Positions 9,476-21,787 of a DNA stretch of 45,151 nt are shown here, one piece after another; position 1 is the first letter of the stretch; each line of letters begins with the position of its first letter. Location: contig CALVSI010000009.1 in NCBI GenBank assembly GCA_944358985.1, positions 1 to 45,151 of the forward strand, given 5' to 3'. The translations under genes and the position numbers were made by a program. The notes under the pieces were generated by a model. The model saw only the letters and a list, made by a program, of their open reading frames with translations. It did not search any database and was not told where the DNA came from. This DNA comes from an uncultured Bacilli bacterium. GTDB taxonomy: Bacteria; Bacillota_I; Bacilli_A; RFN20; CAG-826.

Positions 9476-9516
9476 TTATCTGTTTTTGATTGTCAATTAT
9501 TTTATTAGCATATCAT

Positions 9517-9545
9517 TTGATATATACCCTAGGTAGGTATATTAT
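9517..9545 (+). promoter_or_regulatory. Copper operon promoter with CsoR operator
   Basis: TTGATA (9517-9522) and TATTAT (9540-9545) are spaced 17 bases. Between them lies the inverted repeat ATATACC-N7-GGTATAT (9522-9542), which has the GC-tract and TATA flanks of CsoR operators. Apo-CsoR bound here would block both promoter hexamers; Cu(I) binding would release it. Confidence 0.75.
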
Positions 9546-9564
9546 ATTAATTGAGGTAATAACA

Positions 9565-9855
9565 ATGAAAGCAAAACATAATTTAACAACAATTAGAAAT
9601 GATGAAGAAAAATTAGATTTATGCAAAAGAATAAATCGTATTCAAGGACAAATAAATGGAATAAAAAACATGATAGAAAATAATAGGTATTGCGATGATA
9701 TTTTAATACAATTATCCGCAGTGGATAAGGCTATTAAAAGTTTAGCTAATCAAATATTAAATCGACATCTTCACACATGTATTATCGAAAATATTAAAAA
9801 TGGAAATGAATCTGTTATAGATGAAATTTCCGATTTATTTAAAAGGTTTCAATAA
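9565..9855 (+). CDS. csoR: CsoR-type copper-sensing repressor
   Basis: This 96-residue, all-helical regulator has the Cu(I) triad of CsoR: Cys43 in NRYCDDIL, then His68 and Cys72 in RHLHTC (H-x3-C). The RINRIQGQINGIKNMIE stretch is the family's DNA-binding helix. It represses its own operon in the absence of copper. The start is placed at ATG 9565, with GAGGT at 9553-9557. A longer reading to 9490 would cover the promoter and operator and is rejected. Its stop overlaps the copA start by one base (TAATG). Confidence 0.93.
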   Translation: MKAKHNLTTIRNDEEKLDLCKRINRIQGQINGIKNMIENNRYCDDILIQLSAVDKAIKSLANQILNRHLHTCIIENIKNGNESVIDEISDLFKRFQ

Positions 9856-12359
9856 TGGAATTAAAGTTTAATATTGAAGGCATGACTTGTGCTTCATGCC
9901 AAGCTCACGTTCAAAAAGCTGTTGAAAAATTAAATGGAATTAAAAAGGTCAATGTCAATCTTTTGTCTAATTCAATGAATGTTGACTTTGATGAAAATAT
10001 TTTAAGTGTTGAAGATATAATTTCAAGTGTTGAAAAACAAGGATATAAAGCTTCCATAGTCGATAAGAAAGAAAATAATTTAGTTTCTACAAAACGCGAA
10101 ACAAAAAAGAAAAAAGTTGATTTGGATTTAATCAAATTAATTATTAGTTTTGTTTTTTTAATTATATTAATGTATGTTTCAATGGGACATATGATCGGAT
10201 TACCTCTTCCAGATTTTTTAAGTCCAGAAGAAAATCCACTTGCCTTTGCATTTACTCAGCTCTTGTTAACTATTCCAAGCTTGATAATTTATGCAAAATA
10301 TTTTAAAAATGGTTTTTTAAGATTATTTAAATTATCACCTAACATGGATAGTTTAATAGCGATAGGAGCGTGTGCATCGTTAATATATGGTGTATATGCA
10401 ATTTATCAAATCGGATATGGCTTAAGCCATAATATAGATGTTTTAGATTATACACACAATTTATATTTTGAAAGTGCTGCGATGATTTTAACTTTAGTAA
10501 GTTTAGGTAAATATTTTGAAGGACTAGCCAAAAAAAGAACTACTAAAGCTGTAGAAAAAATGATGGATTTAGCTCCTAAAAAAGCAACATTATTAATTAA
10601 CGAAGAAGAAAAAGTTGTTGATATAGAAAAAGTTAAAGTAAACGATATTGTCGTAGTTAAAAAAGGCGAATCTATACCAATTGATGGAGAAATTATTAAA
10701 GGCAGTGCTTCAATAGATGAATCAACAATTACCGGCGAATCTATTCCTGCTTTTAAAAAAGAAGGAGATAGTGTTTATTCATCAACAATATTAACTAGCG
10801 GTTATGTTTTAATTAAGGCTTTAAAAGTTGGAAAAGATACTTCTATTAACACTATTATTGAATTAGTAGAACAAGCCAGCAATTCTAAAGCTCCAATTTC
10901 CAAATTAGCGGATAAAGTATCTTTATATTTTGTTCCTACGATATTATTAATTGCACTTGCCACTTTTATCGGATTTTTAAGTGCTGGCTATGATTTTGAA
11001 TTAGCGTTTAATTTTGCAATATCGGTTGTCGTTATTGCTTGTCCTTGTGCGTTAGGTCTTGCTACACCTGTCGCTATTATGGTTGCGACCGGAAAAGGAG
11101 CAAGCAATGGATTATTAATTAAAAATGCCGAAATATTGGAAAAATCTCATTTAATTAAAACGGTCGTATTAGATAAAACGGGAACGATTACTAATGGTTC
11201 CCCCACTATTACTGATGTTTTATACTTAAAACAAGATCAAGAAAAAATATTAAATATTATTTATAGCATTGAAACGTTAAGTGAACACCCTCTTGCTAAC
11301 GCTATTAACGAATACTGCAAAAAAAATAATGCTTTAAACAATTTAAAAATAGAAGATCATATCGCTCAAGATGGAAAAGGTTTATATGCTAGAATCGATA
11401 ACATTACTTATTATATTGGTAATAAAAAAGGATTAGATATCGATTTAGATGATAATATTAAAAGTTCTATAGATAAATTATCTAGTCAAGGCAAAACTAT
11501 ATTATATGTCGCTGATGAAAAAGAAGTTTTAGCTATTTTAGCATTAAAAGATGAAATTAAAGAAAATAGCAAATATGCTATTAAATTATTAAAAGATATG
11601 CAAATTAAGGTTGTAATGTTAACAGGAGATAATCAAAAAACCGCACAAGCAATTGCTAATGAAGTTGGTATTGATGAAGTTTATAGTGAGGTTTTACCAA
11701 TTGAAAAATCCACAATTATTAATTCTTTAAAAACAGACAACAAACATTTAGTGGCGATGGTTGGCGATGGTGTTAATGATGCTTTAGCTTTAACAAGTGC
11801 TGATTTAGGAATTGCCATAGGAGGAGGTAGCGATATTGCAAAAGAAAGTGCTGATATAGTTTTAATTAAAAATGATCTTATCGGTGTTGTTAATGCGATT
11901 AGATTATCTAAAAGAACACTAAATACAATTAAAGGTAATTTATTTTGGGCTTTCTTTTATAACTGTATCGGTGTCCTATTAGCGACTGGGATGTTTTATC
12001 CTTTAAACCCTGAATTAAAACTTAATCCAATGATTGGATCTTTAGCGATGTCAATTTCTAGTGTTTTTGTTGTTTTAAATGCCCTAACAATAAATTTATT
12101 CAAATTTAAAGAAAACAAAATTATAAAAAATGTTAAACAAAAGGAGGAAGAAAAGATGGAAAATTTAACATTAAAAATTAAAGGCATGATGTGTCAACAT
12201 TGTGTTATGCATGTCACTAACGCATTAAAAGCTGTTCAAGGAGTTAAAGAAGTTAACGTTTCTTTAGAAAATGAATCCGCGGAAGTCAAAGGTTTAAATT
12301 TAAATCTAGAAGAATTAAAAACCGCAGTTAAAAACGCTGGATATGAAGTTATTGATTAA
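9855..12359 (+). CDS. copA: Copper-exporting P1B-type ATPase with fused C-terminal CopZ domain
   Basis: The protein has 834 residues. An N-terminal metal-binding domain has GMTCASC (Cys12, Cys15). Then come membrane segments, the TGES actuator loop, the intramembrane CPC metal site (396-398), the phosphorylated Asp of DKTGT (~440), MLTGDN and GDGVNDALAL. This is a Cu(I) efflux pump. Unusually, a second metal-binding domain with GMMCQHC (Cys780, Cys783) follows the last membrane helix via a charged linker KQKEEEK. That linker is encoded by a strong ribosome-binding sequence and followed by an in-frame ATG, so free CopZ may also be made. Translationally coupled to csoR. Confidence 0.95.
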   Translation: MELKFNIEGMTCASCQAHVQKAVEKLNGIKKVNVNLLSNSMNVDFDENILSVEDIISSVEKQGYKASIVDKKENNLVSTKRETKKKKVDLDLIKLIISFVFLIILMYVSMGHMIGLPLPDFLSPEENPLAFAFTQLLLTIPSLIIYAKYFKNGFLRLFKLSPNMDSLIAIGACASLIYGVYAIYQIGYGLSHNIDVLDYTHNLYFESAAMILTLVSLGKYFEGLAKKRTTKAVEKMMDLAPKKATLLINEEEKVVDIEKVKVNDIVVVKKGESIPIDGEIIKGSASIDESTITGESIPAFKKEGDSVYSSTILTSGYVLIKALKVGKDTSINTIIELVEQASNSKAPISKLADKVSLYFVPTILLIALATFIGFLSAGYDFELAFNFAISVVVIACPCALGLATPVAIMVATGKGASNGLLIKNAEILEKSHLIKTVVLDKTGTITNGSPTITDVLYLKQDQEKILNIIYSIETLSEHPLANAINEYCKKNNALNNLKIEDHIAQDGKGLYARIDNITYYIGNKKGLDIDLDDNIKSSIDKLSSQGKTILYVADEKEVLAILALKDEIKENSKYAIKLLKDMQIKVVMLTGDNQKTAQAIANEVGIDEVYSEVLPIEKSTIINSLKTDNKHLVAMVGDGVNDALALTSADLGIAIGGGSDIAKESADIVLIKNDLIGVVNAIRLSKRTLNTIKGNLFWAFFYNCIGVLLATGMFYPLNPELKLNPMIGSLAMSISSVFVVLNALTINLFKFKENKIIKNVKQKEEEKMENLTLKIKGMMCQHCVMHVTNALKAVQGVKEVNVSLENESAEVKGLNLNLEELKTAVKNAGYEVID
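12141..12158 (+). promoter_or_regulatory. copZ: Internal ribosome site for a possible free CopZ (12156-12359)
   Basis: AAGGAGG (12141-12147) stands 8 bases before an in-frame ATG (12156) inside copA. Starting there gives a 67-residue protein, the normal length of the copper chaperone CopZ, with the Cys-x2-Cys site near its N-terminus. The site looks like a former intergenic ribosome site kept after the copA stop codon was lost. Whether it is used is not shown by sequence. Confidence 0.55.
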
Positions 12360-12538
12360 TTAATTTTTTATAATTATTACTATTTAAAAAATCTTTTAAC
12401 ATTTTTTAGTTATGTTTTTTACGTTATTTTTACAATTTTTTGTTATTTTTTGATGATTAAAATAATAAATATATTCTCTAATATGTGACTTTTTTTACAC
12501 ATTGAATATATTTTGTTTTTACTATGACTATCTATATA

Positions 12539-12551: not shown

Positions 12552-13529
12552 ATGAATAAGAAATCCGCACCACTTCTCATATTAAAAATTTTACAACAAT
12601 TTAGTGATGAAAATCATTTAATGACACAGCAAGATATAATTGATAAATTACAATCTTTATATAATTTAAAATTGGAAAGAAAAAGTGTTTCAGCTTCTAT
12701 TAAATTATTACAAGATTTAGATTATGACATTATTAAAACTAATAAAGGGTGTGCTTATATTGATCGCGTTTTTGAAGAAAGTGAAGTTCAATATATTATT
12801 GATTTATTGTTATCAAGCAAATCAATAACTGGTTCTTATGCTTTACAAATCGCTGATAAATTAAAAAATACTTTAAGCGAAAATAGTAAACAAGATTATA
12901 ACTATATAATGGAATCAAAAAGTATTAATCGCACGAACAACAAAGAAATATTTTTAAATATAGAAACAATTAAAAAAGCTATTAAAAATAATAAATGGAT
13001 AGGTTTTCAATATTTAACATATGATGAAGATGGCAAACAAACACTAGCGTTTAATAATTATGTATATCATGCTTCTCCTTGCTTTTTAATAAATAATCAA
13101 GGCCGTTACTATTTATTAGCACAAAGAAACAAATATAAAAATATTAATATATTTCGTGTTGATTATATGAAAAATATTTATGAAATGGATGATAGACAAC
13201 GTATACCTATAAACGAAGTTGATGAATTTAAATCATATAAAAATATATCTGATTACATTAATGATCACATTTATCCTTTTGGTGGAAAAATCATTCATGC
13301 GGTCATTGAAGTATTTAATCCGCGTTCATTAACTTATGTTAATGATTGGTTTGGCGCGAACGCTAAAATATATAAAAAAGATAATCATTTATTTGCTAAA
13401 ATAAAATGTAATGAAAAAGCTTTCTTTTATTGGGCTATGCAATATAGTGAACATATCAAAGTCATTTCACCAAAAGAAATGATTGAAAATATTAAAAAAG
13501 CTGCAGAAGAAATGCTGAAAAAATATTGA
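12552..13529 (+). CDS. WYL-domain transcriptional regulator
   Basis: The protein has 325 residues. An N-terminal winged helix-turn-helix (residues ~1-70, with MTQQDIIDKL and KSVSASIKLLQDLDYDI) is followed by a WYL-type ligand-binding domain around residues 140-210 (NKWIGFQYLTYDEDG, YYLLAQRNKYKNINIFRVDYM). A C-terminal WCX-like tail (VIEVFNPRSLTYVNDWFG) completes the layout. These regulators sense nucleic-acid-like or nucleotide ligands and are common next to phage-defence genes. It stands at the left border of the helicase/nuclease island, oriented away from copA's control, and is probably monocistronic. Stop codon is TGA. Confidence 0.85.
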   Translation: MNKKSAPLLILKILQQFSDENHLMTQQDIIDKLQSLYNLKLERKSVSASIKLLQDLDYDIIKTNKGCAYIDRVFEESEVQYIIDLLLSSKSITGSYALQIADKLKNTLSENSKQDYNYIMESKSINRTNNKEIFLNIETIKKAIKNNKWIGFQYLTYDEDGKQTLAFNNYVYHASPCFLINNQGRYYLLAQRNKYKNINIFRVDYMKNIYEMDDRQRIPINEVDEFKSYKNISDYINDHIYPFGGKIIHAVIEVFNPRSLTYVNDWFGANAKIYKKDNHLFAKIKCNEKAFFYWAMQYSEHIKVISPKEMIENIKKAAEEMLKKY

Positions 13530-13537
13530 TATTACGT

Positions 13538-13630
13538 TTATTTATAAATATTTTTTAGTTGTTTTTTGCTAAGCCAAGGTTTTTTTCTATGAATCATCGA
13601 ATGACAATTTGAACAAACATTAATCTCGTT
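13538..13630 (-). pseudogene. C-terminal remnant of an HNH endonuclease
   Basis: Thirty minus-strand codons before a TAA read as the end of an HNH nuclease: INVCSNCHSMIH followed by basic residues and a short helix. The CxxCH...H pattern is the second half of the HNH zinc and active-site motif. A TAG precedes it in frame and no start exists, so only the tail survives. It points to past nuclease content in this region. Confidence 0.5.
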
Positions 13631-13937
13631 CTATAAATGAACACTAATTTTGCATGTTCCAAATTACAATATTAAGCTATAGTTAGTTATCAATTTGACT
13701 AATTGTTATAATACAATTATAAAAAAATTAAAAATGAATTAAAAAAATATATTTGTTAACACACGAATTTTTAGTCAAAAATTATGTTTTAAAAATAATT
13801 GAAAATTTTTATACCCAATCATTAAAAATTAATATAGATATGATGACATTTATTATTTGAATGTAGTGTGTTAAATAATTCGTTTAGTCTGCTGATGTTT
13901 TTGGAATATCATGTAAAGATGATTGCAATTACAAAAA
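13631..13937. other. AT-rich gap, no gene seen
   Basis: About 300 bases between the HNH remnant and the helicase stop. No open frame, RNA fold or strong repeat is recognised. It holds the decayed upstream part of the HNH gene or unrelated filler. Confidence 0.5.
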
Positions 13938-16667
13938 TCATTTTTTTATTAATTTGTATTTGTTTTCTAATATTTTAACATCCTTAATGACATTTTTTGT
14001 CTTAAATGATTTAATGATTGCCGTTTCACTTTCTGGAGACCAATATATAGTTAAAAATCTCTTGGCTCTTGTTATAGCTGTATAAAATACATTATGTGAA
14101 ATTGCTTCTTCAACTTCTCTTGTAATTATTAATTTGACAGAATTATATTCTAATCCCTGAGATTTATGAATTGAGATAGCATAAGCTATTTCAAAAGGAA
14201 TTTTGTTTGAATCATTTGTATCTTTGTCATAATCGTCCTCTGTAGCATTTAAAACAGTTAATTTAATTAACGATTTATCTTCACCCAAATTAGAAACAAA
14301 AATAAAATTAGAATATCTTATTAAAGGATTTAAGATAGTATCAACTTCAAGAGTAAACTCTATACTTTGGTTTGGATTAATCCTCACATCTTTAATTACT
14401 CCTTTTAAATTGTTGTAAATATATCCATCAAATCTGCTAGTATCGTTAAAAATTATTGGATCACCTATTTTAAAAACATGTTGTTTCCAGATTATTTCAT
14501 TATTTGGATTATTGATTTGCAATATTCTATTTAGATTGTTTATACCATAAAGACCATCATAATTGAGAGCCAGTATAATCTCATCAGAATTTGTTTTTTT
14601 AAAAATGCTTTCATCAATAATATGAGAAAATCTATATGAAACAAACATTTCTTGCATATTAGGTTTGATATTTCTAACACTATCCCATACTTCAATTAAA
14701 ATATTTCCTTCTTTGCATCGATAAATATGAAATAGATCAGTATATGAATACTTTTTTATAAAATTGCGCAATAAAGCAAACCAATTTCCAAATTGAATTG
14801 CAGGTAATTGATATATGTCTCCAGCTAATATCATCAATTTTGTTTCTATTTTTGTAAGAACATCATGCATATCCTTGGAAGAAATAGTGCTACATTCATC
14901 TATAACTACAATATCGTATTTTGTTTGGATATCTTTGTTTGCAATAAAACTTTTAATTGTTTTATAATGAACACGCGTGTCATCTATTTTCTTAACCATA
15001 TTTTGAAGCGCAGCATGCGTATTTGTTAAACACAATTTAGAAATTTGACCTAGCGCTTTTAGTTCTTTACTAATCAAAGTTGATTTTCCAGTTCCTGCAG
15101 CACCATAAATGCAAAACAAGCTTGAGTTCTTGAACATTTCTTTAAAGGCTTTTTCTTTTTCTTTATCATCAAACTGTATAGTTCCGTTTTTTAAAAAAGA
15201 ATCAATATAAGTTGAGTAATTTGGAAAATTTATAATATTAGTTCTGGATATTAAATTTTTTATAATTTTGATTGAATTGACTTCGTTTTCCCTTATATAA
15301 ACGTTTTTGCCAAAACGCTCAAGATATCTTTCGCCTTGAAAAGAAGGGATTCTTTTATTATATTTTTGAATTAATCTATCGGCTTCATCAAGATCTGAAT
15401 CCTTGATACCAATATAAATAGATGCTGTTTTATTAGATTCATTTATTATATGATTCGCAAAAATATCATCCTCATAATCCTTATAATTAAATAGGTTAAT
15501 TAAAATATTAAATAAAGGATTATGTTTAATTAAAGAACCACTATATGGAGTTTTATCAAAAACCAAAACTCCATTTTTTAGAAATAAATTTGATACTTTA
15601 GGATTCTCTTTGTTGCTTAATTGATTTTTAATAATTGAATTTGTAAAAATATTAGCCAAATATTTGACAGTGTTATAACCAACAATTTTCCGGTGTAAAA
15701 ACTTTCTTGAATAATTCAACAATTCTATCAAATAAGAAGATTTCTTTTTGGCATCTATAATCGTATTCATAAATTCATTGTAGTCAGTATCTGCAAATTC
15801 AAGTATTTCAGAAATTGAAATGTGATTATTTTTTATATAATCCATTAAGCGCTCATATTGATCGGTTCTACTATTTTTTTGATTCAATCCAAAAATTTTT
15901 GCAAATTTGTCTAACTCACATGGCCTAATGGCAATCCAATAATCTACAATCACCATCAATGGAACATCTTTTCCAAATACTTTTATGAATTTTTTTTCAA
16001 AAGAACATCTTACTGCATAATTTTCAAACATATCTATTTTGGAATACGCAATAAACCTATCAAATTTGCTTACATCATCAAACGCATCTGTTAATGTATA
16101 TTCATAAAATAATATTTCTTTGATATATATAGTTTTTTTCTTTCTGATATAAAATGTGTTCGTTCCAAATTTTTTAGAATTGTGGTGACTAATATTTACT
16201 ATATCTTTAATGCTATTATAATAACTTTCAAGATTAGAATCCAAGTCTAAAGGTATCTTATTTAAATTATTTAAAACAATTATTCCGAAATCATTTTTAA
16301 ACAACAATTTTATTTTAATAAGAAATTCAAAATATTTTAATAACATTCTTTCTGCATATTCGCCATATAAATTATAGTGTGATAAACTGGCTTGCAAACA
16401 ATCATGGAAGATGCGAAGAAACCTAAATTTACTATTTTTCTTGATATAACTGATAGAATGTCCAATTATTTCATATCTGTTAACAGCATTTTCTTTGTTT
16501 TTCTTTGTATAAACATAGCAAGCAACTGCTTCAACCAAATTTCTCAAACTATTCAAAACATTTGAAGCAATCAAACCTCTATTATCATCTCTAATAAGTG
16601 ATAAATTTTCATCAATTAAACAACAAGATTGAATCAATTCATTTTTCCAATATTCATCATTAAACAT
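13938..16667 (-). CDS. Superfamily 1 (RecD/UvrD-like) helicase with a large unknown N-terminal region
   Basis: The protein has 909 residues. The C-terminal ~400 residues form an SF1 helicase core: Walker A GAAGTGKST (~521-529), TNTHAAL (motif Ia), Walker B VVIDECST, GDIYQLPA (motif III), YAISIHKSQGLEY (motif V) and TAITRAKRFL (motif VI). The first ~500 residues match nothing I recognise. They begin helical and are Lys/Asn-rich, without obvious nuclease motifs. It likely unwinds or translocates on nucleic acid. It lies 345 bases downstream of the DUF2075 gene on the same strand. No ribosome site lies close to ATG; a TATAAT at 16694-16699 suggests its own promoter. Confidence 0.85.
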   Translation of the reverse strand: MFNDEYWKNELIQSCCLIDENLSLIRDDNRGLIASNVLNSLRNLVEAVACYVYTKKNKENAVNRYEIIGHSISYIKKNSKFRFLRIFHDCLQASLSHYNLYGEYAERMLLKYFEFLIKIKLLFKNDFGIIVLNNLNKIPLDLDSNLESYYNSIKDIVNISHHNSKKFGTNTFYIRKKKTIYIKEILFYEYTLTDAFDDVSKFDRFIAYSKIDMFENYAVRCSFEKKFIKVFGKDVPLMVIVDYWIAIRPCELDKFAKIFGLNQKNSRTDQYERLMDYIKNNHISISEILEFADTDYNEFMNTIIDAKKKSSYLIELLNYSRKFLHRKIVGYNTVKYLANIFTNSIIKNQLSNKENPKVSNLFLKNGVLVFDKTPYSGSLIKHNPLFNILINLFNYKDYEDDIFANHIINESNKTASIYIGIKDSDLDEADRLIQKYNKRIPSFQGERYLERFGKNVYIRENEVNSIKIIKNLISRTNIINFPNYSTYIDSFLKNGTIQFDDKEKEKAFKEMFKNSSLFCIYGAAGTGKSTLISKELKALGQISKLCLTNTHAALQNMVKKIDDTRVHYKTIKSFIANKDIQTKYDIVVIDECSTISSKDMHDVLTKIETKLMILAGDIYQLPAIQFGNWFALLRNFIKKYSYTDLFHIYRCKEGNILIEVWDSVRNIKPNMQEMFVSYRFSHIIDESIFKKTNSDEIILALNYDGLYGINNLNRILQINNPNNEIIWKQHVFKIGDPIIFNDTSRFDGYIYNNLKGVIKDVRINPNQSIEFTLEVDTILNPLIRYSNFIFVSNLGEDKSLIKLTVLNATEDDYDKDTNDSNKIPFEIAYAISIHKSQGLEYNSVKLIITREVEEAISHNVFYTAITRAKRFLTIYWSPESETAIIKSFKTKNVIKDVKILENKYKLIKK

Positions 16668-17012
16668 AAAATACTTTTTTTACATTTTCCTCAATTATAA
16701 AAATTGTAATTAATTTAATGACATTTTATCACTAATATTAAAAAAATAAAAATATTATAAATATTAATAGAAACCCACGATGTTAATTATAAATTAATTC
16801 TATCTTTAATATTTTAGCAAACACATGTTTATATTATCTTATCAAATAAAAATAATCGAAAGAATCGAATTGATTATAAAAAATTGTTTTGATTATTTAC
16901 TGGAATAAAATATGTCAACTAAATAACAATTATTTACTTCTCCGGTTGGAATAGCATTGTGAATAAGCGATTGAGTTTAGTTGAAACAAAAAAGTGTAAC
17001 TATTCCATTTAT
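16668..17012. other. 345-base gap before the helicase gene, with complementary segments
   Basis: No gene is seen. It probably contains the helicase promoter (minus-strand TATAAT at 16694-16699). Its right part holds three short segments that are complementary to three others in the same order (16948-16954 with 17000-17006, 16959-16966 with 17009-17016, 16970-16975 with 17016-17021). Confidence 0.4.
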
Positions 17013-18902
17013 TCACTCAATTTCCACTTTTATCATTTCGCTAATATGTTTTAATAATTCCTTGTCTTCGCAGTATATATAACAACCTTTTTGTCCTCGT
17101 GATAGCAATACTTTATAAGTATCTTTTATTATTCTTTCTGCTTTTTCTTTATAATTTGGTTGTGATTTAATTCCATGTAACGACTTATCAGTTTTGGCTC
17201 TTTTTGATGCATCTGTAATAACGTGGGTGTTTTTATATCTTAAATCTTGTCCGATTATGACACCAACATAATCAAATTCTAGACCTTGTGAAGTATGAAT
17301 ACATCCGACTTGTGCAAAACTATCTTCATCAATTGCCCAAGTTGTTGTGTTATTAAAGTTCCATTTTGCATGAAAATCATCTTCTAAATTTATGTCATAT
17401 TCGTCAGAATATATTGCTTGTTTTGTAATCCAATTATAACAATATCCCGCGAGCATACGAGCTTTGTTATTAGTATTTTTCTTTTCTAACTCATCGCGCA
17501 TTTTAGAAGGACTATTAAATAATCTTATTTCATAATCCAAATCAAAATCGTAATTTGCGGTTTGACGAATTTCTAATAAATTATCTAAAAAAGCCAAATA
17601 TCCATCAGATCCATTACATCTAAATTGACTAGTAAGATTTAATGAATCATCATAAATCACTTTGCTATTTTCAATATGCGCCCATTTTTTAATTTCTTCA
17701 ATCGAACCAATATCTGATGCGGTAACTATTTGATCCTCATCGATGAAAAATACAGAAACTCTAGAAGAATGAATAATTTCTTTTATTTGATTTTCGCCAA
17801 GATTTTTATACATGCCACTTTTTGCATTTAATCTATGAGCTTCATCACATAATATACAATCAAATTGATTTAATGAAGCATTAACAAAACTTCCAGAACC
17901 AACAAAAAGATTTTTTAAGTAATGTTTCTTATATTTCTTCCCCATTAATTTTTCAAAATATACTTCTCTTGGGGCACTATTTTTTGAAGTATACACAGCA
18001 GATTTTTTATCCATTATTAAATCGCGTAGCAATTGAATTGCTATAACACTTTTTCCAGTTCCAGGACCGCCTTTGACGATTATTGTATATTTACCACTTT
18101 CACTTTTTAAATCGTTCGTGGATTTTAAACTTTTATTAACAATGGATTTTATTACCTCATATGCAACTTTTTGTTCATCAATCAAATAAAATTCTTTATT
18201 TCCATCAAACATCCCACTAATAGCGTCTTGCAAAGATTTAGATGGTTTTAATTTTCCATTTTCAATTTGCATTAAAATATCAATATTATCTTTTTTCTTA
18301 ATGAATTTTTTAATAAAATTTCTTAATTTAATTTCATCTCTACCTAAAAATAAAGGAGCCAATGTAATTGCTTCTTTATAAAAATCATTATCGATGTGTA
18401 AACGATTAATTTCGCGATAATTATGTAAGTACGCACATGGCTTTATACTTATATTATTTTTTTGAATAGATTCATTAAAATTTTCGATAATTTTTGCATA
18501 AGAATAAGCTTGATATGAAGGATGACAAACGAAACGTTCAGCACCACCCGTAAAAGCATAAACAACATCTGGTCGATTAGTTTGTTTACTATCTTCCCAC
18601 TGCTTTAATTCGACTACTACAACATTATTTGAATCATTTTCATCACAACCTGAAATTAAAAAATCAACGCGCTTTGAAGTTAGAGGTATTTGATACTCTA
18701 TCGCTAATCTACAAGAATTAGAAATGTCATTGTCATCAAGTACATCACGCATGAATTGAAGTGAATTTGCCCACGCTCTATACTCGCTTTCGTGGCTATA
18801 TGGAATATGATGTTTGCTCATCTCTTCTTCGATAATGTCCGCTAATATTCCATTTCTAACATCATCGATAAAACCACCTTTAGTATTTTGATAAACAATC
18901 AT
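17013..18902 (-). CDS. PD-(D/E)XK nuclease-like domain fused to a DUF2075 (Schlafen-type) helicase
   Basis: The protein has 629 residues. The N-terminal ~110 residues contain RVDFLISG and VVVELKQW, placing Asp80, Glu98 and Lys100 as a PD-(D/E)XK nuclease signature, with Glu69 as a further acidic residue. The remainder is the DUF2075/Schlafen group 3 DNA-RNA helicase: Walker A GGPGTGKSV (~276-284), ILCDEAHRL, FFIDEDQIV, TSQFRCNG, HTSQGLEFDYVGV and VLLSRGQKGCYIY. It is predicted to be an ATP-driven nucleic-acid-processing enzyme with nuclease activity. The ATG overlaps the stop of the MazG-like gene by one base, so the two are co-translated, as often seen for this family. A role in phage defence is inference. 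Confidence 0.87.
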   Translation of the reverse strand: MIVYQNTKGGFIDDVRNGILADIIEEEMSKHHIPYSHESEYRAWANSLQFMRDVLDDNDISNSCRLAIEYQIPLTSKRVDFLISGCDENDSNNVVVVELKQWEDSKQTNRPDVVYAFTGGAERFVCHPSYQAYSYAKIIENFNESIQKNNISIKPCAYLHNYREINRLHIDNDFYKEAITLAPLFLGRDEIKLRNFIKKFIKKKDNIDILMQIENGKLKPSKSLQDAISGMFDGNKEFYLIDEQKVAYEVIKSIVNKSLKSTNDLKSESGKYTIIVKGGPGTGKSVIAIQLLRDLIMDKKSAVYTSKNSAPREVYFEKLMGKKYKKHYLKNLFVGSGSFVNASLNQFDCILCDEAHRLNAKSGMYKNLGENQIKEIIHSSRVSVFFIDEDQIVTASDIGSIEEIKKWAHIENSKVIYDDSLNLTSQFRCNGSDGYLAFLDNLLEIRQTANYDFDLDYEIRLFNSPSKMRDELEKKNTNNKARMLAGYCYNWITKQAIYSDEYDINLEDDFHAKWNFNNTTTWAIDEDSFAQVGCIHTSQGLEFDYVGVIIGQDLRYKNTHVITDASKRAKTDKSLHGIKSQPNYKEKAERIIKDTYKVLLSRGQKGCYIYCEDKELLKHISEMIKVEIE

Positions 18903-19216
18903 TAGAATTTATTCTCCTTATCAAGAGGATATTTTAAAGAATTTTTGGATATTTTATTATTAACAATCTCATCGATATTTAAATTATATTTTTCAGCAAT
19001 TTGAACAGCATAAATAAAAATATCCGCTAATTCTTCCTTTATTTTATCTATTTTGTTTACACAATCTAAATTATCACCACTCCACTGAAAAATTTCTAAT
19101 AATTCAGCAGATTCTAAAGATAAAGAAATCGCTAAATCTTTTCCGTTATGATATTTTTCCCAATCTCTATCAATATTAAACTGATTTATTCTCTTTATTG
19201 TTTTATCTGAAAGCAT
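18902..19216 (-). CDS. MazG-like nucleotide pyrophosphohydrolase (dCTPase type)
   Basis: This 104-residue protein has RDWEKYHNGKDLAISLSLESAE, close to the start of dCTP pyrophosphatase/iMazG proteins, then ELLEIFQW and EELADIFIYAVQI. The paired Glu residues and the EExxD motif bind Mg. It would hydrolyse a dNTP (often dCTP or modified forms) to the monophosphate and pyrophosphate. AAGGA lies 8 bases before ATG. It is the first gene of a two-gene operon with the DUF2075 helicase. Confidence 0.87.
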   Translation of the reverse strand: MLSDKTIKRINQFNIDRDWEKYHNGKDLAISLSLESAELLEIFQWSGDNLDCVNKIDKIKEELADIFIYAVQIAEKYNLNIDEIVNNKISKNSLKYPLDKENKF

Positions 19217-19231
19217 ATACTAATTCCTTAT

Positions 19232-19249
19232 ATGGTAATATTTTACCAT
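19232..19249 (-). promoter_or_regulatory. Inverted repeat over the promoter of the MazG-DUF2075 operon
   Basis: ATGGTAA-N4-TTACCAT is a perfect 7-bp inverted repeat 16 bases before the start codon. On the minus strand it includes TGGTAAAAT, a good extended -10 element, so a repressor binding here would shut the operon. No repressor is encoded in the operon; the WYL protein is one candidate. Confidence 0.5.
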
Positions 19250-19380
19250 TTAGTAAAATCGTGTAAATGCCAGATTGTTTTAGTGGAAAAAATTGTGCAT
19301 AACAATAAATTGAAAATCATATTTTATGACTATAAATACTAATTTTGTAAATTGTTGCTTGCTGTTCAAATGATTTTTTA

Positions 19381-20220
19381 TTATTTTATGAACCAATAAA
19401 TCGTTCGATAATGCAATTTAACAAAATCATCAATTGTAAAATCGTCAATTTTTTTAAAATCTTTTTCTAAATATCGCATTTGTCTATCACTAAATAAATA
19501 AACTAGACCAACTTTATTATGTTCTTTAAGCATTGATTTTATTTGATTAACAATAATTTTAAATTCATTTTTAATTTCATTAACACTAGAATTAGTGTTT
19601 TCTTTTGTTCTTTTTAAAAGCAAAGGATATGAATAATCGATAAATTCTTTATATGTATCGTAGTCAACTTTTGGATTGGCGGTATAAAAATGCGATACCA
19701 TTTTAACATTAGGGCGTTTAGGATCATCTATTAATTCTTCGCTATAAAAATTATTAAATCTGATGTCTAACGGATTATCGATTTGAGGATGATTTTTAAC
19801 AAAATCTCGATAATTTAAATAAATTGGATTTTTATAAAATTTTTTATTTTGTTTCGCTGTTTTTGAAAATTCTTCATATTTTTCAATTACATCAGCATAT
19901 TCTTTAGCGATATAAGAAGTAGAATCAAAATATTGTTTATTAATTGCTATTTGATAATATTCTTTGACTTTATTTATACATTCATTATCTTTATCTATGC
20001 ATTCTTTTTCATATTCTTTAAAAGAAATATTCCTATTATTTAAACAACCAAAACAACTGACAAAATCATCATAATCTAATCCATTAAATTCATTAGCATT
20101 TAAACATTCACCACAAAAAGATTTATTACCAGCAATATGAGGAACTAAATTGTCCCCTGCTATTTCATAAATAAGGACAGGTCCATGGATATTTAAAGGT
20201 AAAATTAATTTTTTGTCCAT
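19381..20220 (-). CDS. Hypothetical protein with an N-terminal Cys4 zinc site
   Basis: This 279-residue protein is not recognised. Near the N-terminus it has C36-x2-C39 and C56-x2-C59, a zinc-knuckle or ribbon pattern. The rest is rich in Lys, Asn, Tyr and Asp and predicted mostly helical, without membrane segments or signal. It is on the same strand as the MazG-DUF2075 pair, 164 bases upstream, so it could belong to the same island. No Shine-Dalgarno site is seen; a TGATAAAAT extended -10 lies 9 bases before ATG. Function unknown. Confidence 0.7.
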   Translation of the reverse strand: MDKKLILPLNIHGPVLIYEIAGDNLVPHIAGNKSFCGECLNANEFNGLDYDDFVSCFGCLNNRNISFKEYEKECIDKDNECINKVKEYYQIAINKQYFDSTSYIAKEYADVIEKYEEFSKTAKQNKKFYKNPIYLNYRDFVKNHPQIDNPLDIRFNNFYSEELIDDPKRPNVKMVSHFYTANPKVDYDTYKEFIDYSYPLLLKRTKENTNSSVNEIKNEFKIIVNQIKSMLKEHNKVGLVYLFSDRQMRYLEKDFKKIDDFTIDDFVKLHYRTIYWFIK

Positions 20221-20587: not shown

Positions 20588-21787
20588 ATGATCATAAGAC
20601 CATACTACTTAAAAACGTTAAAAACCTATCGAGATGTTCCGCTTGTAAAGATATTAGCGGGAATTAGACGTTGCGGTAAATCAACTATTTTAGATATGCT
20701 ACGTGATGATTTGGTTGAAAGCGGAATTAGTTTAGATCATATAATTAGTGTTTCATACACTTCAGAAGATTTTGATAATGGCATGACTGATAAAGATATG
20801 TATGATAATATCAAAAAACAAATGATAGACGATAAACGTTATTATTTACTGCTAGATGAGGTGCAAGAAATTTTTGGTTGGGAAAAAGCAATAAATAGTT
20901 TATTAGAACGCACTAATAGCGATATTTATGTGACTGGTTCTAATTCTAAACTAATGTCTAGCGAAATATCTACCTATTTAACAGGACGATATATTTCAAT
21001 ACCTGTCTATACTTTGTCTTTTTTAGAATATCTAGATTTTAAAAAACAAGATTTAAAATCACCAAAAGATTTGCTAAATGAATACATACGTTTTGGTGGA
21101 TTCCCAATAGTAGCAATAGGTAATTTTGATGCACACTCCGCCTATCAGATTGTGGAAGGAATCTATAATTCAGTGATTACTAACGATATAACAAAACGAC
21201 ACAATGTCACAAATATCGATTTGTTTAACCGCGTTGTTAAATACATAATAGAAAACGTTGGTAAAACTTTTTCAGCTAATTCAATTGTTAAATTTCTTAA
21301 AAGTGAAGGTCGATCTTTATCTATAGAAACAATTTATAATTATTTAAGCTGGCTAGAAAAAGCATTTGTAATTTATCGTTGTCAAAGATATGACTTACAA
21401 GGGAAATCCATACTAAAAACTCAGGAAAAATTTTATCTAGCCGACACTTCTTTAAAATATTGTATGATGGGTTTTAATCCTACCTCCATTGCTGCCATGT
21501 TAGAAAATATCGTATATTTTGAACTACGCCGAAGAGGATATGAAGTCTATATCGGAAAAAACAAGACAAAAGAGATTGATTTTGTGGCAATAAGGCGTGA
21601 TGAAAGAATCTATGTTCAAGTATGTAGCAGGTTGCTAGATATGTCGGATCGAGAAATTGATAATCTTCTTGAAATCAAAGATAATTATCAAAAATATATA
21701 ATAACTCTAGATGAACTAGCGACAGGTAATATTAAAGGTATTAAAATTATCCATTTAGCGGATTTTCTTTTAAATGATGAATATTAA
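20588..21787 (+). CDS. AAA_14/DUF4143 family ATPase
   Basis: The protein has 399 residues. The N-terminal ATPase has Walker A GIRRCGKST (~25-33) and Walker B YLLLDEVQEI, with sensor-like VTGSNSKLM. The C-terminal part is DUF4143 (KFYLADTSLKY, ENIVYFELRRRGYEVYIGK, EIDFVAIR), which resembles a restriction-endonuclease-like fold with EIDFVA. This widespread family has no settled role. The start has a strong GAGGAGGT site, with TATAAA at 20560-20565 as the -10 box. It is monocistronic. Base composition resembles the neighbours. Confidence 0.9.
   Translation: MIIRPYYLKTLKTYRDVPLVKILAGIRRCGKSTILDMLRDDLVESGISLDHIISVSYTSEDFDNGMTDKDMYDNIKKQMIDDKRYYLLLDEVQEIFGWEKAINSLLERTNSDIYVTGSNSKLMSSEISTYLTGRYISIPVYTLSFLEYLDFKKQDLKSPKDLLNEYIRFGGFPIVAIGNFDAHSAYQIVEGIYNSVITNDITKRHNVTNIDLFNRVVKYIIENVGKTFSANSIVKFLKSEGRSLSIETIYNYLSWLEKAFVIYRCQRYDLQGKSILKTQEKFYLADTSLKYCMMGFNPTSIAAMLENIVYFELRRRGYEVYIGKNKTKEIDFVAIRRDERIYVQVCSRLLDMSDREIDNLLEIKDNYQKYIITLDELATGNIKGIKIIHLADFLLNDEY

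What the first reader, a model, noticed from the sequence alone, without database searches (positions are those of the whole stretch)
13938..19216. Candidate defence module: dCTPase-like MazG + PD-(D/E)XK-DUF2075 helicase, with an SF1 helicase downstream
Seen: a nucleotide pyrophosphohydrolase gene overlaps by one base a gene fusing a PD-(D/E)XK signature (Asp80, Glu98, Lys100) to a Schlafen-type DUF2075 helicase. A 909-residue SF1 helicase follows on the same strand. The promoter of the pair carries a perfect inverted repeat over its -10. Known: nucleotide depletion and nuclease-helicase fusions are recurrent themes of phage defence. Inference: the pair acts together on nucleic acid and its precursors, with the helicase as a possible third part.
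Basis: partly seen in the sequence, partly recalled or inferred. Interest (0 to 1): 0.68.

Follow-up and report, generated by a model that had tools for sequence, protein, structure and literature searches.

The report
MazG plus nuclease-helicase defence pair
Two overlapping genes, a nucleotide-destroying enzyme and a DNA-cutting helicase, form a mobile module that recurs next to each other in defence islands of bacteria and archaea, which suggests that microbes couple cutting invader DNA with policing the DNA building blocks.

Summary
Confirmed: a 104-aa MazG gene overlaps by one base a 629-aa gene with an N-terminal PD-(D/E)XK signature and a Schlafen-group-3 (DUF2075) SF1 helicase. The pairing is real. 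MazG lies next to this nuclease-helicase, on the same strand, in 68 of 101 testable loci across many phyla and archaea, upstream or downstream. Catalytic residues of both are invariant. The pair is patchy and travels in defence islands (63 PADLOC families around it versus 11 in control regions). The 909-aa helicase is not a third part. It is the separate PADLOC candidate PDC-S53, is swapped out beside the intact pair in a congeneric genome, and is absent from the other pair-bearing relatives searched. The promoter repeat is chance-level. Two unexpected clues: (1) an unrelated nuclease-helicase, the SauUSI-like type IV restriction enzyme, is equally tied to an unrelated pyrophosphohydrolase (NUDIX; 18 of 20 loci); (2) 13 homologues carry a LexA/UmuD-like autoprotease domain. 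Best reading: the nuclease-helicase destroys foreign DNA, and the DCTPP1-like MazG hydrolyses dCTP or 5-modified dCTP, most likely to keep modified nucleotides out of host DNA. Defence and substrates are inferred; no experiment was found.

The parts
18902..19216 (-). MazG-like NTP pyrophosphohydrolase, 104 aa; EXXE/EXXD active site E35, E38, E62, D65; dCTP-pocket residues W19, W45, Y69
   Evidence: PF12643 8e-14; PDB dCTP pyrophosphatase 1 6e-12 for the single sequence and 1e-21 for the family profile; catalytic residues invariant in the paired homologues
17013..18902 (-). PD-(D/E)XK nuclease - SF1 (SLFN group 3, DUF2075) helicase, 629 aa; start codon overlaps the MazG stop by one base
   Evidence: PF09848 3e-99; AlphaFold model pLDDT 91, pTM 0.92
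18303..18902 (-). N-terminal nuclease region (about residues 1-200), D80-x17-E98-L-K100, plus invariant E69, S47 and H127-P128
   Evidence: D80, E98, K100 invariant in 63 sequences; predicted helix 37-55, strands 65-71, 78-86, 92-100, helix 128-142, strand 152-159
17064..18089 (-). SF1 helicase core (residues 272-613), Walker A GGPGTGKS, Walker B DEAH
   Evidence: PF09848; VIA-align Z 21 to UvrD over residues 232-627; Foldseek best hit human SLFN11, then Dna2
17006..19311 (-). Block conserved as a unit (pair plus about 95 bases upstream) between two congeneric genomes, with different cassettes on both sides
   Evidence: blastn of window against G003: 96.4% identity over 2306 bases, breaks at 17006 and 19303-19311
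13938..16667 (-). PDC-S53 SF1 helicase, 909 aa: neighbouring separate defence candidate, NOT part of the pair
   Evidence: PADLOC 4e-277; slot 13527-17005 replaced by KAP-NTPase/PDC-S49-like and MrcB_N-NOV_C genes in G003
19232..19249 (.). 7-bp inverted repeat upstream of the pair; judged chance-level
   Evidence: 29% of shuffles have arms as long; broken in G003

Best explanation
A horizontally moving two-gene defence module. The PD-(D/E)XK nuclease-SF1 helicase is the effector: it tracks on and cuts invading DNA, using ATP. The co-translated MazG is a DCTPP1-type pyrophosphohydrolase acting on dCTP and 5-modified dCTP. Committed mechanism for MazG: it keeps modified cytosine nucleotides (from the invader's metabolism or from degraded modified DNA) out of host DNA, so that a nuclease biased to modified DNA does not attack its own chromosome. 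Probabilities: defence module with these two enzyme activities about 0.8; sanitation or self-protection role for MazG about 0.35; plain dNTP depletion 0.25; nucleotide-gated control of the nuclease 0.15. Shown by sequence: gene pair, linkage, intact catalytic motifs, defence-island context, mobility. Inferred: DNA as substrate, preference for modified DNA, MazG substrate, protection from phage.
For: Linkage: MazG adjacent on the same strand in 68 of 101 testable loci, 52 upstream and 16 downstream; 18 of 29 within 1.5 kb in a second sample drawn from an evenly sampled phylum set, overlapping the first by a few genomes. The MazG state changes at least 18 times on well-supported branches, so the pairing was lost and re-made repeatedly. 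Co-occurrence in relatives: MazG in 23 of 27 genomes with the helicase versus 15 of 68 without (Fisher p 1.7e-8). Active sites: invariant. Defence context: PADLOC at E 1e-30 gives 63 families among 130 neighbours (BrxL, PglZ, type IV REase, methylases, AbiEi, Mza) versus 11 among 130 control genes; annotated plasmids show BREX-4, Druantia and type I R-M beside homologues. Substrate: seven of eight DCTPP1 dCTP-pocket residues are kept, including both Trp that contact the 5-methyl group (PMC4491611). Parallel: SauUSI-like type IV enzymes, which cut m5C/hm5C DNA (PMC3874153), have a NUDIX hydrolase beside them in 18 of 20 loci, and that NUDIX is closest to CTP pyrophosphohydrolase in the PDB. MrcB_N proteins recur next to the pair or to MazG.
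Against: One third of the nuclease-helicases have no adjacent MazG, so MazG is not obligatory. MazG and nuclease-helicase distances are only weakly correlated (Mantel r 0.21), and paired MazGs are interleaved with unpaired ones in the tree, so MazG looks recruited rather than tightly co-evolved. No modified-base reader domain was recognised in the 629-aa protein. No phage-protection experiment on this family was found.
Confidence: 0.68

Rival explanations
1. Nucleotide depletion: MazG is itself an effector that drains dCTP (and related dNTPs) during infection while the nuclease-helicase attacks DNA, as with known dCTP deaminase or dGTPase defences.
For: MazG catalytic residues invariant; DCTPP1 also hydrolyses plain dCTP (PMC4491611).
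Against: MazG is often absent or exchanged. The same MazG family occurs beside non-defence genes, including a ribonucleotide reductase, where draining dNTPs without control would be harmful.
Confidence: 0.25
2. DNA-damage response or repair module: a resection nuclease-helicase with dNTP pool sanitation, protecting genomes rather than fighting phage.
For: 13 homologues carry a C-terminal LexA/UmuD-like S24 domain with conserved Ser, Lys and an Ala/Cys-Gly cleavage dipeptide, implying control by DNA damage; Dna2 is among the best structural matches.
Against: Patchy distribution (30 of 95 relatives), presence on plasmids, defence-island neighbours versus controls, exchange at one site within a genus.
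Confidence: 0.15
3. Three-gene system including the 909-aa helicase.
For: Same strand, 345 bases downstream.
Against: PDC-S53 is a known stand-alone candidate; in G003 that slot holds other genes beside an intact pair; S53 in 3 of 95 relatives, none with the nuclease-helicase.
Confidence: 0.03
4. Two unrelated genes: a housekeeping MazG that happens to lie beside a stand-alone nuclease-helicase.
For: MazG relatives exist elsewhere beside metabolic genes; a third of the nuclease-helicases lack it.
Against: 68 of 101 loci adjacent on the same strand in both gene orders, across bacteria and archaea; MazG occurs in only 38 of 95 genomes, so adjacency by chance would be well under one per cent.
Confidence: 0.03

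Closest known systems
PADLOC PDC-S41 (uncharacterised candidate single-gene system)
   Same: Nearest defence profile; N-terminal extension plus SLFN-g3 helicase; all 18 homologues tested match it
   Different: Window protein matches only remotely (1e-22), whereas a true member in L109 scores 4e-241; PDC-S41 is listed as a single gene, without MazG
Nhi and AbiO (Nhi: single-gene nuclease-helicase immunity)
   Same: Nuclease and SF1 helicase in one chain; 12 and 11 of 18 homologues hit these profiles
   Different: In the two homologues where positions were examined, hits fall in the helicase part (residues 221-481); the window protein itself does not hit; no MazG partner is described for Nhi in what I read (PMC11811056)
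SauUSI-like type IV restriction enzyme with NUDIX
   Same: Nuclease-helicase fusion tied to an NTP pyrophosphohydrolase, same islands, both gene orders
   Different: PLD nuclease, SF2 helicase and DUF3427 reader; NUDIX instead of MazG: unrelated folds
PADLOC PDC-S53
   Same: Is the neighbouring 909-aa helicase (4e-277)
   Different: Not part of the pair
Eukaryotic Schlafens (SLFN11)
   Same: Best Foldseek hit of the whole model; helicase Pfam family is named for them
   Different: No AlbA-type Schlafen RNase core; N-terminal PD-(D/E)XK signature instead
DCTPP1 / RS21-C6 dCTP pyrophosphatase
   Same: Fold family by sequence; seven of eight pocket residues
   Different: His38, which hydrogen-bonds the cytosine, is not conserved; substrate untested

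Membership tests
MazG-like all-alpha NTP pyrophosphohydrolase | EXXE ... EXXD metal-binding motif within the helical core | tested here: met
   E35, E38, E62, D65 invariant in paired homologues; PF12643 8e-14
DCTPP1-type dCTP pyrophosphatase | Base pocket His38, Trp47, Trp73, Tyr102 plus catalytic acids | tested here: inconclusive
   All conserved except His38 (residues from PMC4491611); activity not testable here
PD-(D/E)XK nuclease | D-x(n)-(D/E)-x-K motif | tested here: met
   D80, E98, K100 invariant in 63 sequences
PD-(D/E)XK nuclease | alpha-beta-beta-beta-alpha-beta core fold | tested here: inconclusive
SLFN group 3 / DUF2075 SF1 helicase | Full-length match with Walker A and B | tested here: met
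   PF09848 3e-99 over positions 2-354 of 354; K284, D353, E354 invariant
Schlafen (SLFN RNase) defence proteins | AlbA_2-type Schlafen core (PF04326) | tested here: not met
   Pfam scan finds no such domain in the 629-aa protein
PDC-S41 | Full-length high-scoring match to PDLC05014 | tested here: not met
   1e-22, two partial stretches, against 4e-241 for a real member
Nhi / AbiO | Profile match of the whole protein | tested here: not met
   Window protein has no hit at E 0.001; in the two homologues examined singly the hits lie in the helicase part
PDC-S53 (909-aa helicase) | Full-length profile match | tested here: met
   4e-277, residues 9-906
Type IV (modification-dependent) restriction | Recognisable modified-base reader domain or shown cleavage of modified DNA | tested here: inconclusive
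   No reader domain found by Pfam; cleavage not testable here
Anti-phage defence system | Measured protection from phage | not testable with these tools
   Only context evidence

The most novel reading that the evidence does not exclude
A general rule: nuclease-helicases that attack modified foreign DNA are paired, convergently with unrelated enzymes (MazG or NUDIX), with a pyrophosphohydrolase that clears 5-modified dCTP so that modified nucleotides never enter host DNA. Self-protection would come from cleaning the nucleotide pool instead of modifying the chromosome, and in some lineages a fused LexA-like autoprotease would arm the nuclease on DNA damage.
Probability: 0.25. Interest if true: 0.85.

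Novelty: new variant of a known kind. Interest (0 to 1): 0.62.

Why it matters
Nuclease-helicases and nucleotide hydrolases are both known in phage defence, but a dedicated, repeatedly re-assembled pairing of the two across bacteria and archaea is not in PADLOC 2.0.0, and I found no description in the papers searched (DUF2075 appears in five papers of the library, none identified from its title and abstract as about defence; MazG is only predicted as a defence domain in the DefensePredictor paper). If the hydrolase protects the host by cleaning modified nucleotides, it would be a third form of self/non-self logic besides DNA methylation and target memory. The matching NUDIX-SauUSI pairing makes this directly testable with an enzyme whose specificity is already known.

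Tried and rejected
(1) 909-aa helicase as third component: rejected by the cassette swap in G003 and by non-co-occurrence. (2) Promoter inverted repeat: rejected as chance-level. (3) The neighbouring AAA_14/DUF4143 gene (PDC-S01) as defence evidence: rejected, because PDC-S01 models are as frequent in control regions. (4) Tight co-evolution of MazG and nuclease-helicase: only weak (Mantel r 0.18-0.21). (5) MazG-DUF2075 gene fusion: none found. (8) Paper searches for the pair gave no description; Burroughs 2015 (PMC4678834), cited by DefensePredictor for nucleotide-centric conflict domains, is not held, so prior mention there cannot be excluded.

Full report
1. What is there. Three minus-strand ORFs lie at 18902-19216 (104 aa), 17013-18902 (629 aa) and 13938-16667 (909 aa). 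The first two share base 18902. The 104-aa protein is MazG-like (PF12643, 8e-14). The 629-aa protein has a full SLFN-g3/DUF2075 helicase (3e-99) behind about 240 residues that Pfam does not name. The window lies in a 1.17-Mb, 47-contig, AT-rich draft genome.

2. Nuclease and helicase motifs. In an alignment of 63 homologues with 31-54% identity to the window protein, from many bacterial phyla, archaea and two viral contigs, D80, E98 and K100 are invariant, as are Walker A (K284) and Walker B (D353, E354). An AlphaFold model (pLDDT 91, pTM 0.92) places D80 in the second and E98-K100 at the end of the third strand of a helix-strand-strand-strand-helix-strand arrangement, as expected of PD-(D/E)XK enzymes. 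The best whole-model matches are human SLFN11, then Dna2 nuclease-helicase (Foldseek); UvrD leads by VIA-align over residues 232-627. So the fold is supported but not independently shown.

3. MazG. The family profile hits dCTP pyrophosphatase 1/RS21-C6 at 1e-21. The window protein aligns with DCTPP1 so that W19, E35, E38, W45, E62, D65 and Y69 fall on Trp47, Glu63, Glu66, Trp73, Glu95, Asp98 and Tyr102, seven of the eight pocket residues named in PMC4491611, where Trp47 and Trp73 contact the 5-methyl group. These are conserved, with few conservative exceptions, in 61-68 paired homologues and also in unpaired ones; His38 is not conserved. DCTPP1 prefers dCTP and 5-methyl-dCTP (PMC4491611, PMC7162842).

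4. The pair is real. Of 101 loci with enough flank, 68 have MazG within 700 bases on the same strand, 52 upstream and 16 downstream. Neighbour clustering over 109 loci found MazG as the only dominant partner: 62 of 62 on the same strand and 58 immediately adjacent. A second sample from an evenly drawn phylum set, sharing a few genomes with the first, gave 18 of 29. The pairing occurs in Bacillota, Bacteroidota (10 of 10), Pseudomonadota, Spirochaetota, Verrucomicrobiota and Methanobacteriota, and by record title also in Saccharibacteria and Parcubacteria. On the nuclease-helicase tree the MazG state changes 24 times, at least 18 forced by well-supported branches, and the gene order changes about ten times. 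This is repeated re-assembly, not one inherited operon. Distance correlation is weak (r 0.21, p 0.0008), so MazG seems exchangeable. In 95 relatives MazG is present in 23 of 27 genomes with the helicase against 15 of 68 without.

5. Mobility and defence context. Within the genus, G000 and G003 share the pair at 97% identity at one site, G004 has a 51%-identical one elsewhere, and G001 and G002 have none. The window and G003 are collinear at about 96% identity except for swapped cassettes: the slot 13527-17005 holds PDC-S53 here but a KAP-NTPase/PDC-S49-like and an MrcB_N-NOV_C gene in G003, and 3.4 kb is inserted in G003 between the pair and the 279-aa gene. PADLOC at E 1e-30 finds 63 families among 130 genes within 7 kb of homologues, including BrxL, PglZ, type IV REase, methylases, AbiEi and Mza, against 11 among 130 genes of random regions from the same genomes, mostly housekeeping look-alikes. 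Annotated plasmids show BREX-4, Druantia, type I R-M and ABC-three-component genes beside homologues. Homologues in viral collections are rare.

6. The 909-aa helicase. It is PDC-S53 (4e-277), present in 3 of 95 relatives, none of which has the nuclease-helicase. It is a neighbour, not a part.

7. Two clues to mechanism. First, in the same islands a SauUSI-like protein (PLD nuclease, SF2 helicase, DUF3427; PADLOC type IV restriction 4e-235) sits beside a NUDIX hydrolase (PADLOC PDC-S07). In a class-wide sample, 18 of 20 such enzymes have this NUDIX adjacent, 16 on the same strand and 2 convergent within 45 bases. That NUDIX is closest in the PDB to a putative CTP pyrophosphohydrolase and lies near the MutT and pyrimidine (deoxy)nucleoside triphosphate diphosphatase models. 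SauUSI cuts m5C and hm5C DNA (PMC3874153). So two unrelated nuclease-helicases each carry an unrelated pyrophosphohydrolase. MrcB_N proteins, the McrB-like reader type, also recur next to the pair or to MazG. Second, 13 homologues carry a C-terminal LexA/UmuD-like S24 domain; the aligned examples keep Ser, Lys and an Ala/Cys-Gly cleavage dipeptide, which suggests damage-triggered control in those lineages. The window protein lacks it.

8. Mechanism. Most likely the nuclease-helicase destroys foreign DNA, and MazG removes 5-modified dCTP so that the host does not build its own target. Depletion of dCTP and nucleotide gating remain open. The self-protection reading rests on substrate family, the SauUSI parallel and MrcB_N neighbours; it is inference. 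Enzyme activities and defence are not shown by experiment here or in the papers found.

9. Known or new. PADLOC 2.0.0 holds only remote relatives (PDC-S41 1e-22 for the window protein; Nhi and AbiO for some homologues) and no MazG partner. DefensePredictor lists MazG as a predicted, unvalidated defence domain (PMC13092281). I file the pair as a new variant of nuclease-helicase defence.

Noticed in passing
L222-L241 (SauUSI-like loci, class-wide sample); L043, L045, L054, L087, L089, L115: SauUSI-like type IV restriction enzymes (PLD, helicase, DUF3427) are almost always next to a NUDIX hydrolase (18 of 20), upstream or downstream; no published description was found in the library.
   Followed up: partly
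L052, L060, L062, L066, L068, L073, L075, L077, L082, L084, L095, L099, L103: C-terminal LexA/UmuD-like S24 autopeptidase domain fused to the nuclease-helicase, with conserved catalytic Ser and Lys and a scissile Ala/Cys-Gly dipeptide in the aligned examples.
   Followed up: partly
window 17013-18902, residues 40-51: Family consensus ExxSWxNSL resembles the Schlafen SWADL motif, and SLFN11 is the best structural match; the Schlafen linker may be a degenerate form of this nuclease domain.
   Followed up: partly
window 19381-20220: 279-aa protein with Cys-rich motifs and no Pfam, NCBIfam or PADLOC match, conserved in the congeneric G003 but separated from the pair there by 3.4 kb.
   Followed up: partly
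window 9490-12401 and G003:C2:723187-725734: The island lies beside a CsoR-CopA copper operon; CopA is intact here but split into two reading frames in G003.
   Followed up: no
window 20588-21787: AAA_14/DUF4143 protein scores as PDC-S01 (3e-150), but PDC-S01 models were as frequent in control regions, so this model is a poor marker of defence islands in this lineage.
   Followed up: yes
L125 (10001-13987), L032: Some replicons carry two copies of the nuclease-helicase near each other (Hymenobacter plasmid; G077).
   Followed up: no
L261, L266, L267, L268: Nuclease-helicase homologues with several in-frame TGA codons in small genomes of one family, suggesting TGA is read as Trp there.
   Followed up: no
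L156 5354-7305; L157 89-1674; L128 8446-9839: The same MazG family also sits next to a Schlafen AlbA_2-HATPase protein and next to MrcB_N proteins, so it may serve several defence modules.
   Followed up: partly
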